Source of the DNA: Sphingomonas qomolangmaensis
GTDB taxonomy: Bacteria; Pseudomonadota; Alphaproteobacteria; Sphingomonadales; Sphingomonadaceae
DNA length: 64,000 nt
Direction: 5' to 3'
Assembly (NCBI RefSeq): GCF_024496245.1
Contig: NZ_CP101740.1
Span: forward strand, 186,001 to 250,000
Positions within the stretch are counted from its first letter, which is position 1. Each line of letters begins with the position of its first letter. Positions 48,075 through 52,604 of this stretch are shown piece after piece. The translations under genes were made by a program, and so were the position numbers. The notes beneath the pieces are model-generated. The model did not search any database. It had not been told where the DNA came from and saw only the letters and a list, made by a program, of their open reading frames with translations.

Positions 48075-48458
48075 TCAGGCGCGGCAGGTCTGCTCGCCCT
48101 TGCCCGGCTGGGTCACGGTGATGTTTTCCATGTCGCCGGTCAGCGAATAGCCTTCGGCGACATAGGGCTGGCCCGCCTCTGGCGCGCGCAGCGGCGTTGG
48201 GGTTTCGCCGCGCTTGTCGCGCAGGTTCACCAGCTTGTCGCCGTCGAAGAATTCGACGTACAGCAGGCTGTTGTCCTTGCAGCGGAACGCGACATTGCCG
48301 CGGATCGCGGGCGGCAGTTCGACGGGCGCTGCCTTTTCCTTTGCAGCGGCGAGCGGGTCGGGCGCCCGGCTGTCGACGACTTCGGGTTCGGCCTGCTGGC
48401 ACGCGGCCAGCGACAGGGCGGCGAGGACCGCCACGGCGGGGAGGATGCGATGCTTCAT
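48075..48458 (-). CDS. Small lipoprotein with MliC-like C-terminal domain
   Basis: A 127-residue protein with lipobox SLAAC (signal MKHRILPAVAVLAALSLAAC). The C-terminal part FRCKDNSLLYVEFFDGDKLVN, GQPYVAEGYSLTGDMENITV and TQPGKGEQTC matches the pattern of membrane-bound inhibitors of c-type lysozyme (MliC): a paired Cys, an acidic start and the GY-L-G...T...G..TC end. It could protect peptidoglycan from lysozyme. The match is by pattern only. Confidence 0.7.
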   Translation of the reverse strand: MKHRILPAVAVLAALSLAACQQAEPEVVDSRAPDPLAAAKEKAAPVELPPAIRGNVAFRCKDNSLLYVEFFDGDKLVNLRDKRGETPTPLRAPEAGQPYVAEGYSLTGDMENITVTQPGKGEQTCRA

Positions 48459-48532
48459 AGGCACGCGATTTCGCGTATGCAGCAAGCCGCGTCAAGCGAA
48501 ACCCGTAGCGTTCGACTAAGCTGAACGCTTGT

Positions 48533-49108
48533 TCATTGTTGCGCCGCGGCAGGCGCGGCCGCATTATTCGCCAAGACGATCTCGACGCGGCGGTTCTTCT
48601 GTCGGCCGTCGGGATCGTCGCCACCGGTGGGATTGGCATTGGGCGCGGTTGGACGCAACTCGCCCAGCCCGATCGCGGTGAGTATCGCGGCATCGACCTG
48701 GCGCTGCTCGACCAGATAGTCGCGCACCGCTTGCGCCCGGCCCTCGGAAAGCCGCTTGTTATAGGCATCGTCGCCCTTGGCGTCGGTATGGCCCTCGATC
48801 GACACGCTGGGCGGGTTCTGCGCCTTGACGAGCTCAGCAAGCTTGTCGAGCGTGCCGCGCGCGTCGGCACGGATCGTCGCCTTGTCGAAGTCGAACAGCA
48901 CGTCGCCAGGGAGCGACACCAGCGTGCCGCGATCGGTCTGGGTGGCGTTGAGCTCGGTCTGCAGCGTCTGCACCTGCGACAGGTTCGAGGTCGCGACCGA
49001 GCCGGTGCCAAAGCTGCTGCCGGTGCCGTTGGCAATCTCAAGCGCTGAATAGCCCGCCTGCAATGCCTTTAGACTGCTGACTTTTTTTTTGAGCCATCGT
49101 CGGACCAC
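48533..49108 (-). CDS. OmpA-like C-terminal domain, downstream half of a split gene
   Basis: This frame encodes the OmpA peptidoglycan-binding domain: DVLFDFDKATIRADARGTLD, SVSIEGHTDAKGDDAYNKRLSEGRAQAV and DGRQKNRRVEIVLAN, after a coiled segment SSLKALQAGYSALEIANG. Its own possible start (GTG 49108) encodes no signal peptide, so alone it could not be exported. It continues in the -1 frame from the lipoprotein gene 49069-49668, joined at an A9 run. A -1 shift at A-AAA-AAG would give one outer-membrane lipoprotein of about 378 residues. Confidence 0.85.
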   Translation of the reverse strand: MVRRWLKKKVSSLKALQAGYSALEIANGTGSSFGTGSVATSNLSQVQTLQTELNATQTDRGTLVSLPGDVLFDFDKATIRADARGTLDKLAELVKAQNPPSVSIEGHTDAKGDDAYNKRLSEGRAQAVRDYLVEQRQVDAAILTAIGLGELRPTAPNANPTGGDDPDGRQKNRRVEIVLANNAAAPAAAQQ

Positions 49109-49668
49109 GCGGTGGCGGGGGTGGGGATGTCGAGAATGAATTTGGGGTTGCTGGCGCTTTCGCTGGTCGAGCCGCTTTCGTTGAGCACCAGCTGGAGGCG
49201 GTCGGTCTGCGGGACCGCGCCGACGAACACCAGGTCGCCGGTCATCGTCGCGCCGCTCTCGACTTCGATCTGCTCGTTTAGCTGCGGCGGCGACACGATG
49301 AACTTGCGGTTCTCGGCCAGAAGGAAAGTGCGCTTGCTGTTGCGCAGCCAGTTGAGGTCGACCGGGCGGGTGTGGCCGTTGACATAGGTGATGTTCACGA
49401 TCGTCTCGGTGGGCTTAACCTGGATGGCATTGACCTTGAGCACGCCGCCATTGGGGTGGACCTGTTCGAGCGCGAGCCGGGTCGGCTTGCCGTCGGCGAA
49501 GAGCTTGTCGAAGATCCCGGCTTCCTCGGGGGTGAGGTTCGCTTCGCTGTTGCCGACCGTCGCGGCGGCTTCGGCATCGGCGTTGGCGGCGTCTTCGGTG
49601 CGGGTGTTGCAGGCGGCAAGCGTCAGCGCGGTGGAAAAAGCCAGAAGGGACAGCGAGATGGACTTCAT
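49069..49668 (-). CDS. Lipoprotein N-terminal half, ending just after an A9 slippery run
   Basis: A 199-residue frame from ATG 49668. A lipobox LTLAAC (Cys20) follows signal MKSISLSLLAFSTALTLAAC. The mature part is an immunoglobulin/lipocalin-like beta-rich region (GVLKVNAIQVKPTETIVNITYVN, then RTFLLAENRKFIVSPP and FVGAVPQTDRLQLVLNE). It stops three codons after Lys196 in A-AAA-AAG (49087-49081 on the minus strand). The OmpA frame starts in the -1 frame there. The two halves look like one gene, so the apparent break is programmed frameshifting, slippage, phase variation or a sequence error. Confidence 0.85.
   Translation of the reverse strand: MKSISLSLLAFSTALTLAACNTRTEDAANADAEAAATVGNSEANLTPEEAGIFDKLFADGKPTRLALEQVHPNGGVLKVNAIQVKPTETIVNITYVNGHTRPVDLNWLRNSKRTFLLAENRKFIVSPPQLNEQIEVESGATMTGDLVFVGAVPQTDRLQLVLNESGSTSESASNPKFILDIPTPATAWSDDGSKKKSAV
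49081..49090 (-). promoter_or_regulatory. A9 run with A-AAA-AAG heptamer (candidate -1 frameshift site)
   Basis: The minus strand reads TC then nine A then G; in the lipoprotein frame the codons are TCA AAA AAA AAG. A-AAA-AAG (49087-49081) is the slippery heptamer known from E. coli dnaX. The zero-frame stop TAA follows four codons later (49071-49069). No obvious SD-like stimulator was seen upstream. Confidence 0.6.
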
Positions 49669-49747: not shown

Positions 49748-50023
49748 TCAGCCGTCCTCGTCGCGCGCGCCGTGCCGCACCGAGAGGATTTCGAAGCGAT
49801 CGCCCGCGACGCGATAGCGGATGAGATAGGGGTAGACCACCGAGAGCTGGCGGATGCCGGGGGCGATCTCGCAGCCGCGGTTGGGGAAGGTGTCGAGCGA
49901 GCGGGCAGCTGCCGCCAGGCGCCGGCCAAGACGATCGGCGGCAGGGCTGTCAGACAGATCAATGAAATCGATGATTGCCTGAAGTTCGACCGATGCCGCG
50001 ATCGACCACGAAACGATTGCCAT
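49748..50023 (-). CDS. RelE/ParE-family toxin
   Basis: A 91-residue protein with the ParE/RelE pattern: VSWSIAASVELQAIIDFIDLSDSPAADRLGRRLAAA (N-terminal helices), FPNRGCEIAPGIRQLSV, YPYLIRYRVAGDRFEIL and HGARD. The C-terminal VRHGARDEDG fits ParE-type toxins that act on gyrase or RelE-like mRNA cleavage; which of the two is unresolved. ATG 50023 overlaps the antitoxin stop by one base (TGATG), as is typical of type II pairs. Confidence 0.82.
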   Translation of the reverse strand: MAIVSWSIAASVELQAIIDFIDLSDSPAADRLGRRLAAAARSLDTFPNRGCEIAPGIRQLSVVYPYLIRYRVAGDRFEILSVRHGARDEDG

Positions 50024-50276: not shown

Positions 50277-52604
50277 CTACTTCGCGTCGGCGGGTTCGGT
50301 CTTCCTGCCGCCGCCCTTGCGCTTGGCCTTTTTGGGCGGCGCGGGGACGATTTCGAAGGCGAGTGCCGCATCCTTGAGCTTCACGTTCACTTCGCCGCCA
50401 TGCATCAGCTTGCCGAACAACAGTTCCTCGGCGAGCGGCTGCTTGACCTTCTCCTGGATCAGCCGGCCCATCGGGCGTGCGCCGTAGAGCTTGTCGTAGC
50501 CGCGCTCGGTGAGCCATGCCTTCGATTCATCGTCCAGACGGATGTGCACGCCGCGATCGGCGAGCTGCAGCTCGAGCTGGAGGATGAACTTGTCGACGAC
50601 GCGTGCCACCACTTCGGGCGGCAGATAGCCGAACGGCACGATAGCATCGAGGCGGTTGCGGAATTCGGGGGTGAAGAGCTTCTTCACCGCTTCTTCCTGC
50701 ACGTCGTCGCGATTGCTGGCGCCGAAGCCGATCGATTCGCGCGCCATGTCCGACGCGCCCGCATTGGTCGTCATGATCAGGATGACGTTGCGGAAATCGA
50801 CGGTCTTGCCGTGGTGATCGGTCAGCTTGCCGTTGTCCATCACCTGCAACAGGATGTTGAACAGGTCGGGATGCGCCTTCTCGATCTCGTCGAGCAACAG
50901 CACGCAATGCGGCTGCTGGTCGATCGCGTCGGTGAGCAGGCCGCCCTGATCATAGCCGACATAGCCCGGAGGCGCACCGATCAGCCGGCTGACCGAGTGG
51001 CGCTCCATATATTCGGACATGTCGAAACGCTGGAGCGGGATGCCCATGATCTCGGCGAGCTGGCGCGCGACTTCGGTCTTGCCGACGCCGGTGGGGCCGG
51101 TGAACAGATAGTTGCCGATCGGCTTGTCAGGTTCGCGCAGCCCCGCGCGCGACAGCTTGATCGCCGACGACAGCACTTCGATCGCGGCATCCTGGCCGAA
51201 CACCACGCGCTTTAGATCGGTGCCGAGATTGGCGAGCACGCGGGTATCGTCCGACGACACCGTTTTCGGCGGTATCCGCGCCATCGTCGCGATGACCTGC
51301 TCGATCTCCTTCGAAGTGATCACCTTCTTGCGCTTGTTGGGGGCGACCAGCATCTGCATCGCACCGACCTCATCGATCACGTCGATTGCCTTGTCGGGCA
51401 GTTTGCGGTCGTTGATGTAGCGCGCCGAAAGCTCAACCGCCGACTTGATCGCGTCGGGGGTGTACTTCACCGAGTGATGCCCCTCGAACGCGCTGCGTAG
51501 CCCCGAGAGGATCTTGATCGTGTCTTCGATCGTCGGTTCGTTCACGTCGATCTTCTGGAACCGGCGCAGCAAGGCGCGGTCCTTTTCGAAATGGTTGCGG
51601 AATTCCTTGTAGGTGGTCGATCCGATGCAGCGGATCGTGCCCCCCGACAGCGCGGGCTTCAGCAGGTTCGACGCGTCCATCGCGCCACCACTGGTCGCGC
51701 CGGCACCGATTACGGTGTGAATCTCGTCGATGAAGAGCACCGCATGTGGCAGCTTTTCGAGCTCGTTGACGACCTGCTTCAGCCGCTCCTCGAAATCGCC
51801 GCGATAGCGGGTGCCCGCAAGCAAAGCGCCCATGTCGAGCGAATAGATGACCGCGGGCAGCAGCACTTCGGGAACGTCGCCCTCGACGATCTTGCGCGCG
51901 AGGCCCTCGGCGATCGCGGTCTTGCCGACGCCGGGATCGCCGACATAGAGCGGGTTGTTCTTCGAGCGGCGGCACAGGATCTGCACTGTGCGATCGACTT
52001 CGGGGCCGCGACCGATCAGCGGATCGATCTTGCCGTTCTTGGCCTTTTCGTTGAGGTCGACGCAGAACTGCTTGAGCGCGCTTTCCTTGGCGTCCTTGCC
52101 GCCCTTTTGCGCGGGCTTGTCCTCTTCGGCGGCGCCCTTCACTTCGCGGGCTTCGGTGGGCGCACCGCCCTTGCCGACGCCGTGACTGATGAAGCTGACC
52201 GCGTCGAGCCGGCTCATGTCCTGCTGCTGCAGGAAATACACCGCATAGCTTTCGCGCTCGCTAAACAAGGCGACGAGCACATTGGCGCCGGTCACTTCGT
52301 CGCGGCCCGAGGACTGGACGTGGAGGATCGCACGCTGGACGACGCGCTGGAAGCCGCTGGTGGGCGAGGGATCGGTGGCGCTGTCGACCTTGAGCGCTTC
52401 GAGCTCGGTGTCGAGATAGGTCGCAACCGTCGCCTTGAGGTCGCCCAGGTCGACGCCGCACGACGCCATGACCTTGGCGCCATGTTCGTCGTCGATGAGC
52501 GCGAGCAACAGATGTTCGAGCGTCGCATATTCGTGCCGACGCGAGGACGCAGCCTCGAGCGCTTTGTGGAGCGTTGATTCGAGTGCGGATGCGAAAGACG
52601 GCAT
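50277..52604 (-). CDS. clpA: ATP-dependent Clp protease ATP-binding subunit ClpA
   Basis: A 775-residue AAA+ unfoldase that feeds ClpP. The N-domain repeats (SALESTLHKALEAAS..., about 5-75 and 80-150) are followed by AAA-1 with Walker A GDPGVGKTA (222-230) and VLFIDEIHTVIGAG, and AAA-2 with GPTGVGKTE (about 500) and LLLDEIEKAHPDLF. The IGF-type ClpP loop (ESIGFG, about 620) is present. No clpS gene is directly upstream. Substrate choice through N-end rule is plausible given nearby aat. Confidence 0.97.
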   Translation of the reverse strand: MPSFASALESTLHKALEAASSRRHEYATLEHLLLALIDDEHGAKVMASCGVDLGDLKATVATYLDTELEALKVDSATDPSPTSGFQRVVQRAILHVQSSGRDEVTGANVLVALFSERESYAVYFLQQQDMSRLDAVSFISHGVGKGGAPTEAREVKGAAEEDKPAQKGGKDAKESALKQFCVDLNEKAKNGKIDPLIGRGPEVDRTVQILCRRSKNNPLYVGDPGVGKTAIAEGLARKIVEGDVPEVLLPAVIYSLDMGALLAGTRYRGDFEERLKQVVNELEKLPHAVLFIDEIHTVIGAGATSGGAMDASNLLKPALSGGTIRCIGSTTYKEFRNHFEKDRALLRRFQKIDVNEPTIEDTIKILSGLRSAFEGHHSVKYTPDAIKSAVELSARYINDRKLPDKAIDVIDEVGAMQMLVAPNKRKKVITSKEIEQVIATMARIPPKTVSSDDTRVLANLGTDLKRVVFGQDAAIEVLSSAIKLSRAGLREPDKPIGNYLFTGPTGVGKTEVARQLAEIMGIPLQRFDMSEYMERHSVSRLIGAPPGYVGYDQGGLLTDAIDQQPHCVLLLDEIEKAHPDLFNILLQVMDNGKLTDHHGKTVDFRNVILIMTTNAGASDMARESIGFGASNRDDVQEEAVKKLFTPEFRNRLDAIVPFGYLPPEVVARVVDKFILQLELQLADRGVHIRLDDESKAWLTERGYDKLYGARPMGRLIQEKVKQPLAEELLFGKLMHGGEVNVKLKDAALAFEIVPAPPKKAKRKGGGRKTEPADAK

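What the first reader, a model, noticed from the sequence alone, without database searches (positions are those of the whole stretch)
48533..49668. Lipoprotein-OmpA gene split exactly at an A9 run containing A-AAA-AAG
Two minus-strand frames overlap in a homopolymer. The upstream one has a lipoprotein signal and no OmpA domain; the downstream one has an OmpA domain but no export signal. A single -1 shift at the heptamer 49087-49081 gives one coherent outer-membrane lipoprotein of about 378 residues. The heptamer is identical to the dnaX slippery site, and the upstream stop comes four codons later. Options: programmed -1 frameshifting with two products (soluble-end lipoprotein plus OmpA-fused form), transcriptional slippage, contingency (phase) variation of a surface protein, or a homopolymer indel in assembly.
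Basis: partly seen in the sequence, partly recalled or inferred. Interest (0 to 1): 0.78.

Follow-up and report, generated by a model that had tools for sequence, protein, structure and literature searches.

The report
Conserved A9 slip makes two lipoproteins
In Sphingomonas and its relatives, a run of nine A's inside one gene has been kept in place across distant species, apparently so that occasional slipping while the gene is copied or read yields two versions of an outer-membrane lipoprotein, one with and one without a cell-wall-binding end; some relatives encode the same two versions as two neighbouring genes.

Summary
The upstream frame 49668-49069(-) is a lipoprotein domain ("A"); the OmpA frame is -1 to it, joined at an A9 run (49090-49082). 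The same split with exactly nine A's occurs in 10 of 10 orthologous loci examined (9 genomes, 1 MAG; A domains 31-96% identical to the window's), though their upstream stops differ. Of 120 listed database relatives of the A domain, 118 (the window's own among them) are short and end 1-25 residues after the same GSK(K/E) motif. The OmpA frame is under purifying selection. Transcriptional slippage fits better than a dnaX-type ribosomal shift: half the loci read A_AAA_AAC, a rare TCA codon extending the run is fixed, stimulators are essentially absent, both Lys tRNAs exist. In 10 other genomes the same two products come from a tandem gene pair (A-only, A-OmpA) born of one duplication and lacking the run. 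Against a strict need for both: some relatives have a single-frame A-OmpA. I read it as programmed frameshifting, probably transcriptional, giving a free and a peptidoglycan-anchored form. No RNA or protein evidence was available.

The parts
49069..49668 (-). Upstream zero frame: lipoprotein A domain, short product (199 aa plus stop)
   Evidence: lipobox LAAC by eye; model of residues about 60-185 is a beta-sandwich
49082..49090 (-). A9 slippage run (within TCA AAA AAA AAG)
   Evidence: nine A's in 10 of 10 loci; one of two A9/T9 runs in the genome
49081..49087 (-). Heptamer A_AAA_AAG inside the run (rival ribosomal shift site)
   Evidence: A_AAA_AAG in 5 of 10 loci, A_AAA_AAC in the other 5
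49069..49071 (-). Zero-frame stop (TAA), 10 nt after the run
   Evidence: stop position varies among the ten loci (+1, +10, +73 nt)
48533..49081 (-). Downstream -1 frame: linker plus OmpA-type peptidoglycan-binding domain, joined to the export signal only by the shift (182 aa plus stop)
   Evidence: PF00691 1e-20; dN 0.021, dS 0.238 against G010

Best explanation
The locus is one gene with a programmed, ancient and selected frame transition. RNA polymerase (most likely) slips on the nine A's and makes a mixed mRNA pool. Messages with nine A's are translated to a short outer-membrane lipoprotein that ends a few residues after the run (A domain only). Messages with one extra A (or two fewer) are translated to a lipoprotein of about 378 residues whose C-terminal OmpA domain should bind peptidoglycan. 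The cell thus gets a free and a wall-anchored form of the same Ig-like lipoprotein in a ratio set by the run. Shown: the frames, the conserved run, the changing stops, purifying selection on the downstream frame, and relatives with two dedicated genes for the same two products. Inferred: that slippage occurs, that it is transcriptional, the ratio, and the anchoring role.
For: Run of exactly nine A's in 10 of 10 loci (G000, G010, G050, G027, G144, G021, G416, G453, G559, MAG L013), A domains 31-96% identical to the window's. The A-domain profile searches, which do not ask for the run, gave nine genomes whose match reached the profile's end (SDDGSKK) in single copy, and all nine have A9. Of 33 amino-acid columns invariant in the ten A domains, 7 use one codon throughout, and only three of these end in A or T: TCA, AAA, AAA of the run; TCA is 6 of 291 Ser codons and AAA 29 of 152 Lys codons elsewhere in these genes. 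Zero-frame stops lie at +1 nt (4 loci), +10 (5) and +73 (1) after the run. Substitutions G000/G010 fall in third positions of the zero frame before the run (6/0/25) and of the -1 frame after it (3/5/29); dN/dS about 0.09. In 8 of 10 loci no ATG/GTG/TTG lies before the run in the open -1 frame. Transcriptional rather than ribosomal: A_AAA_AAC in 5 of 10 loci (low efficiency in E. coli, PMC4066793, passage); fold z -1.96 to +1.92 over 20 folds downstream; an SD-like site in 1 of 10; tRNA-Lys TTT and CTT both present, which PMC5009743 says may be relevant to slippage in Thermus dnaX (passage); nine is the length at which selection against slippage is evident in a large share of genomes (PMC1088944, abstract and passages). 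Tandem pairs A + A-OmpA in 10 genomes, with no run of 7 or more A or T in the stretch read.
Against: Single-frame A-OmpA proteins with a recognisable junction exist: 7 of the 120 listed (P0001, P0002, P0003, P0066, P0099, P0104, P0119), among them Qipengyuania spongiae, although other Qipengyuania have the split form. So a separate short form is not needed everywhere. P0001 and P0003 could be run-length variants or sequencing errors. Of the 118 short clusters three have GSKKT and one GSKKI, which imply a run shorter than nine if Ser is TCA, and one has GSKE, a broken run (DNA not seen). Only one silent base (third base of TCA) tells a kept A9 from a kept heptamer, and the ten loci are related by descent. 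PMC4066793 also calls an A_AAA_AAC insertion-sequence cluster without known stimulator a proven ribosomal case. No RNA, proteomic or ribosome-profiling data were available.
Confidence: 0.78

Rival explanations
1. Programmed -1 ribosomal frameshifting on A_AAA_AAG / A_AAA_AAC makes the long form; the extra A's are incidental.
For: The heptamer is in the correct frame in all ten loci. A_AAA_AAG is among the most efficient E. coli motifs when stimulators are present, and one A_AAA_AAC insertion-sequence cluster is a proven case without an established stimulator (PMC4066793, passages).
Against: 5 of 10 loci have A_AAA_AAC, low in efficiency in E. coli; no downstream structure stands out; SD-like site in 1 of 10; tRNA-Lys CTT present; the rare TCA codon, whose A lies outside the heptamer, is fixed in 10 of 10.
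Confidence: 0.15
2. Phase variation: the run gains and loses A by replication slippage and switches the long form on and off.
For: A homopolymer in a surface lipoprotein gene is a classical setting; P0001 and P0003 are single-frame relatives.
Against: Nine A's in 10 of 10 loci; all 118 short clusters listed are split; none of the 120 listed hits of the read-through query has the A9G-class junction KKKVSS in one frame, and the nearest to the query is 52% identical. Strains of one species were not compared.
Confidence: 0.04
3. Sequencing or assembly indel, or a recent inactivating mutation (pseudogene).
For: Homopolymers are error-prone in some technologies.
Against: Same split in nine separately held genomes and a MAG, and in the 118 database clusters listed; purifying selection after the run.
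Confidence: 0.01
4. Only the short form is made in quantity and the OmpA part is a separately initiated or residual protein.
For: GTG at -27 nt in the -1 frame in G000 and G010.
Against: No ATG/GTG/TTG before the run in the other 8 loci; such a product would lack an export signal; in the tandem and single-frame relatives the OmpA part is joined to an A domain with a lipoprotein-like N-terminus.
Confidence: 0.02

Closest known systems
Thermus thermophilus dnaX (transcriptional slippage on nine A's)
   Same: Nine A's in the sense strand give two C-terminal variants; two Lys tRNAs in the organism (passages in PMC5009743 and PMC1088944).
   Different: There the unslipped message gives the long product; here the unslipped message gives the short one. 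Unrelated, cytoplasmic protein.
Citrobacter rodentium tssM1 (A11 slippage, two length variants)
   Same: Poly-A before an early stop; slippage restores a C-terminal envelope domain; both forms needed there (passages in PMC4256274).
   Different: Only one other tssM gene, Yersinia tssM3, was found with such a run; here the site is conserved over ten loci and has a tandem-gene counterpart. Shown by experiment there, not here.
E. coli copA (-1 ribosomal shift makes a chaperone that some other bacteria encode separately)
   Same: One recoded gene in some species, two genes in others (passage in PMC5009743).
   Different: Ribosomal, and there the shift gives the short product.
OmpA-type peptidoglycan-binding lipoproteins (YiaD and others)
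   Same: PF00691 and YiaD-type NCBIfam hits for the downstream frame.
   Different: Here the OmpA domain is joined to its export signal only by a frame change; none of the 25 NCBIfam models shown (of 37) passed its cut-off.

Membership tests
Programmed transcriptional slippage (realignment) genes | Run of nine or more A/T at the frame transition, conserved among homologues | tested here: met
   A9 in 10 of 10 loci
Programmed transcriptional slippage (realignment) genes | Each frame under coding selection on its side of the run | tested here: met
   Codon-phase counts on both sides; dN/dS downstream
Programmed transcriptional slippage (realignment) genes | mRNA with heterogeneous run length | not testable with these tools
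   no RNA data
dnaX-type -1 programmed ribosomal frameshifting | Efficient in-frame heptamer A_AAA_AAG | tested here: inconclusive
   present in 5 of 10 loci; A_AAA_AAC in the other 5
dnaX-type -1 programmed ribosomal frameshifting | Upstream Shine-Dalgarno-like stimulator | tested here: not met
   GGAG in G021 only (1 of 10), none in the window
dnaX-type -1 programmed ribosomal frameshifting | Downstream stem-loop or pseudoknot | tested here: not met
   fold z between -1.96 and +1.92 in 20 folds of 10 loci; pseudoknots not tested
dnaX-type -1 programmed ribosomal frameshifting | Sole tRNA-Lys(UUU), weak on AAG, as in E. coli | tested here: not met
   tRNA-Lys TTT (L173) and CTT (L181) in G000
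Phase-variable (contingency) gene | Run length varies between strains or relatives | tested here: not met
   nine A's in 10 of 10 loci of different species-level genomes; strains of one species not compared
OmpA family (PF00691) | Domain match over the curated cut-off | tested here: met
   74.3 bits, cut-off 27.2, downstream frame
DUF4352 (PF11611) | Match over the curated cut-off for the A domain | tested here: not met
   13.1 bits in P0128, cut-off 25.9; not listed for the window piece. Source names for P0121, P0122 and P0129 nevertheless say DUF4352

The most novel reading that the evidence does not exclude
Sphingomonadales carry an ancient envelope gene in which RNA-polymerase slippage on nine A's sets the ratio of free to peptidoglycan-anchored lipoprotein; in one lineage a duplication replaced the slip by two dedicated genes (A-only and A-OmpA), and in another the frame was fused outright: a natural series showing recoding, subfunctionalisation by duplication, and loss of recoding in one gene family.
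Probability: 0.55. Interest if true: 0.78.

Novelty: new member of a known kind. Interest (0 to 1): 0.66.

Why it matters
To my knowledge (recalled) conserved, non-mobile slippage genes with a plausible function are few. Where sources name the short product they call it hypothetical, DUF4352 or once a copper chaperone, and no listed database protein carries the window's long product in one frame, so it is invisible to annotation. The tandem-gene relatives show what the two products should be and would let one test directly whether recoding can be replaced by gene duplication.

Tried and rejected

Dropped rows and limits: pattern hits L099 (G102), L104 (G239) and L107 (G360) are not this gene. 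Of 11 genomes with two A matches, G258 was left out of the trees: its second copy runs into other coding sequence instead of OmpA. Of 8 genomes with one A match of another type, a separate A gene plus an OmpA lipoprotein without A domain was read for G393 and, fully or in part, for G029, G034, G032 and G033; G203, G222 and G106 were not examined. G924 is a partial match. The profile searches scored only the best 8 or 11 candidates per genome, so their tallies are lower bounds; genomes without a match beyond the first rows were given only as a number. One search (P0099 in 127 family genomes, E up to 1e-50) found matches in 2, one tandem and one split type, and no single-frame genome. In one search the column printed as '+1-frame' is in fact the zero frame and is not used. 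Papers: only passages returned by 'find' were seen (PMC1088944, PMC3711429, PMC4066793, PMC4256274, PMC5009743). The main text of PMC3711429 does not hold the terms OmpA or Sphingo, but its supplementary list of candidate clusters could not be read, so this family may be among them. 10.1093/molbev/msr155 is not held. Of the papers listed (15, 15, 10 and 10 of 102, 36, 18 and 93), none describes this gene in its title or the start of its abstract.

Full report
What is there. On the minus strand an ATG at 49668 opens a 199-residue frame with a lipoprotein signal and no OmpA domain, ending at TAA 49071-49069. The OmpA domain lies in the -1 frame, open through the run and ending at 48533. The two meet at TCA AAA AAA AAG, nine A's at 49090-49082. 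The genome (3,429,145 bases, one contig) has one other A9/T9; it starts 11 bases past the end of a 485-aa ORF. GC of the window is 66.7%.

Conservation. A DNA pattern that includes the run hit 8 of 295 genus and 9 of 396 order genomes, with no hit for the reversed pattern in the same genomes; three of the hit genomes (G102, G239, G360) hold unrelated sequence. Independently, a profile of the A domain alone found matches in 13 of 396, 21 of 295 and 3 of 385 genomes drawn from order, genus and class. Together with the MAG locus L013 this gives ten loci of the split type: G000, G010, G050, G027, G144 (run followed by G) and G021, G416, G453, G559, L013 (run followed by C). All ten have exactly nine A's, and GACGAYGGCTC before the run is the same in all ten. 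Source names of matching short proteins include Sphingomonas spermidinifaciens, S. baiyangensis, S. japonica, S. radiodurans, Qipengyuania and Altererythrobacter.

Selection. Zero-frame stops fall at +10 (5 loci), +73 (1) or +1 nt (4) after the run, so the short tail is not conserved but the run is. Of 33 residues invariant in the ten A domains, 7 use one codon throughout; three of these are A/T-ending, and they are the three codons of the run. TCA is 6 of 291 Ser codons elsewhere in these genes. Only the third base of TCA is a silent position outside the heptamer, so this argument for a full nine rests on one position. After the run, substitutions follow the -1 frame (3/5/29 by codon position, G000 against G010) and dN/dS is about 0.09; five pairs gave dN 0.02-0.26 against dS 0.24-1.15.

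Database view. Profile search: 257 hits, 120 listed. The other two, P0001 and P0003, are in one frame. Three of the 118 have GSKKT and one GSKKI, which suggest shorter runs. Read-through query: 3,837 hits among the 7,998 candidates scored, 120 listed, the nearest 52% identical; 7 of the 120 have a recognisable junction in one frame, and of the rest those that I read in full (P0034, P0050, P0105) look like the tandem-type long protein.

Relatives with two genes. In 11 genomes the A profile matches twice side by side; in 10 of these the first gene is A-only and the second is A-OmpA in one frame, each with a lipoprotein-like N-terminus read by eye, and no run of seven or more A or T lies in the 3.6 kb read. 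In a tree of A domains the A-only copies are one clade (98/92), the A-OmpA copies another (100/100), and the two are joined (96/92): one duplication. Split-type and single-frame sequences lie in several places on the tree. Because the run and its flanks are the same in all ten, I infer that the slip is ancestral among them and was later resolved by duplication or fusion; the tree is unrooted and does not prove this direction.

Mechanism. Transcriptional slippage and ribosomal -1 shifting would give the same long protein. For slippage: nine A's kept, A_AAA_AAC in half of the loci, no downstream structure that stands out, an SD-like site in one of ten, both Lys tRNAs present, with the literature passages. 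For the ribosome: the heptamer is in the right frame everywhere, and an A_AAA_AAC case without stimulator is on record. I put slippage well ahead but not certain.

Function (inferred). The A domain models as an Ig-like beta-sandwich. The long form adds an OmpA domain of the peptidoglycan-binding kind, so the pair would be a free and an anchored form of one outer-membrane lipoprotein. That dedicated genes encode just these two forms elsewhere supports this; that some relatives have a single-frame fused gene argues that the short form may be dispensable there (whether those genomes also hold an A-only gene was not seen).

Noticed in passing
window 49751-50023 (-): ParE-type toxin gene (PF05016, 1.6e-12) directly upstream of the lipoprotein gene, after a ClpA-like gene (50280-52604); no partner was looked for.
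   Followed up: no
window 48075-48461 (-): Small lipoprotein-like ORF without a Pfam hit just downstream; a similar ORF follows the split gene in L089, L090 and L091, then a ParA-like ATPase.
   Followed up: partly
L164 (G258): In this tandem-type genome the second A copy runs into sequence that looks like an EAL domain (by eye) instead of OmpA: recombination or misassembly.
   Followed up: no
L216 position 1501: The only other A9 of the genome starts 11 bases past the end of a 485-aa ORF and is followed by a terminator-like hairpin read by eye.
   Followed up: partly
L095 (G034) position 2580: An A8 run lies inside the open OmpA frame of a separate-type relative.
   Followed up: no
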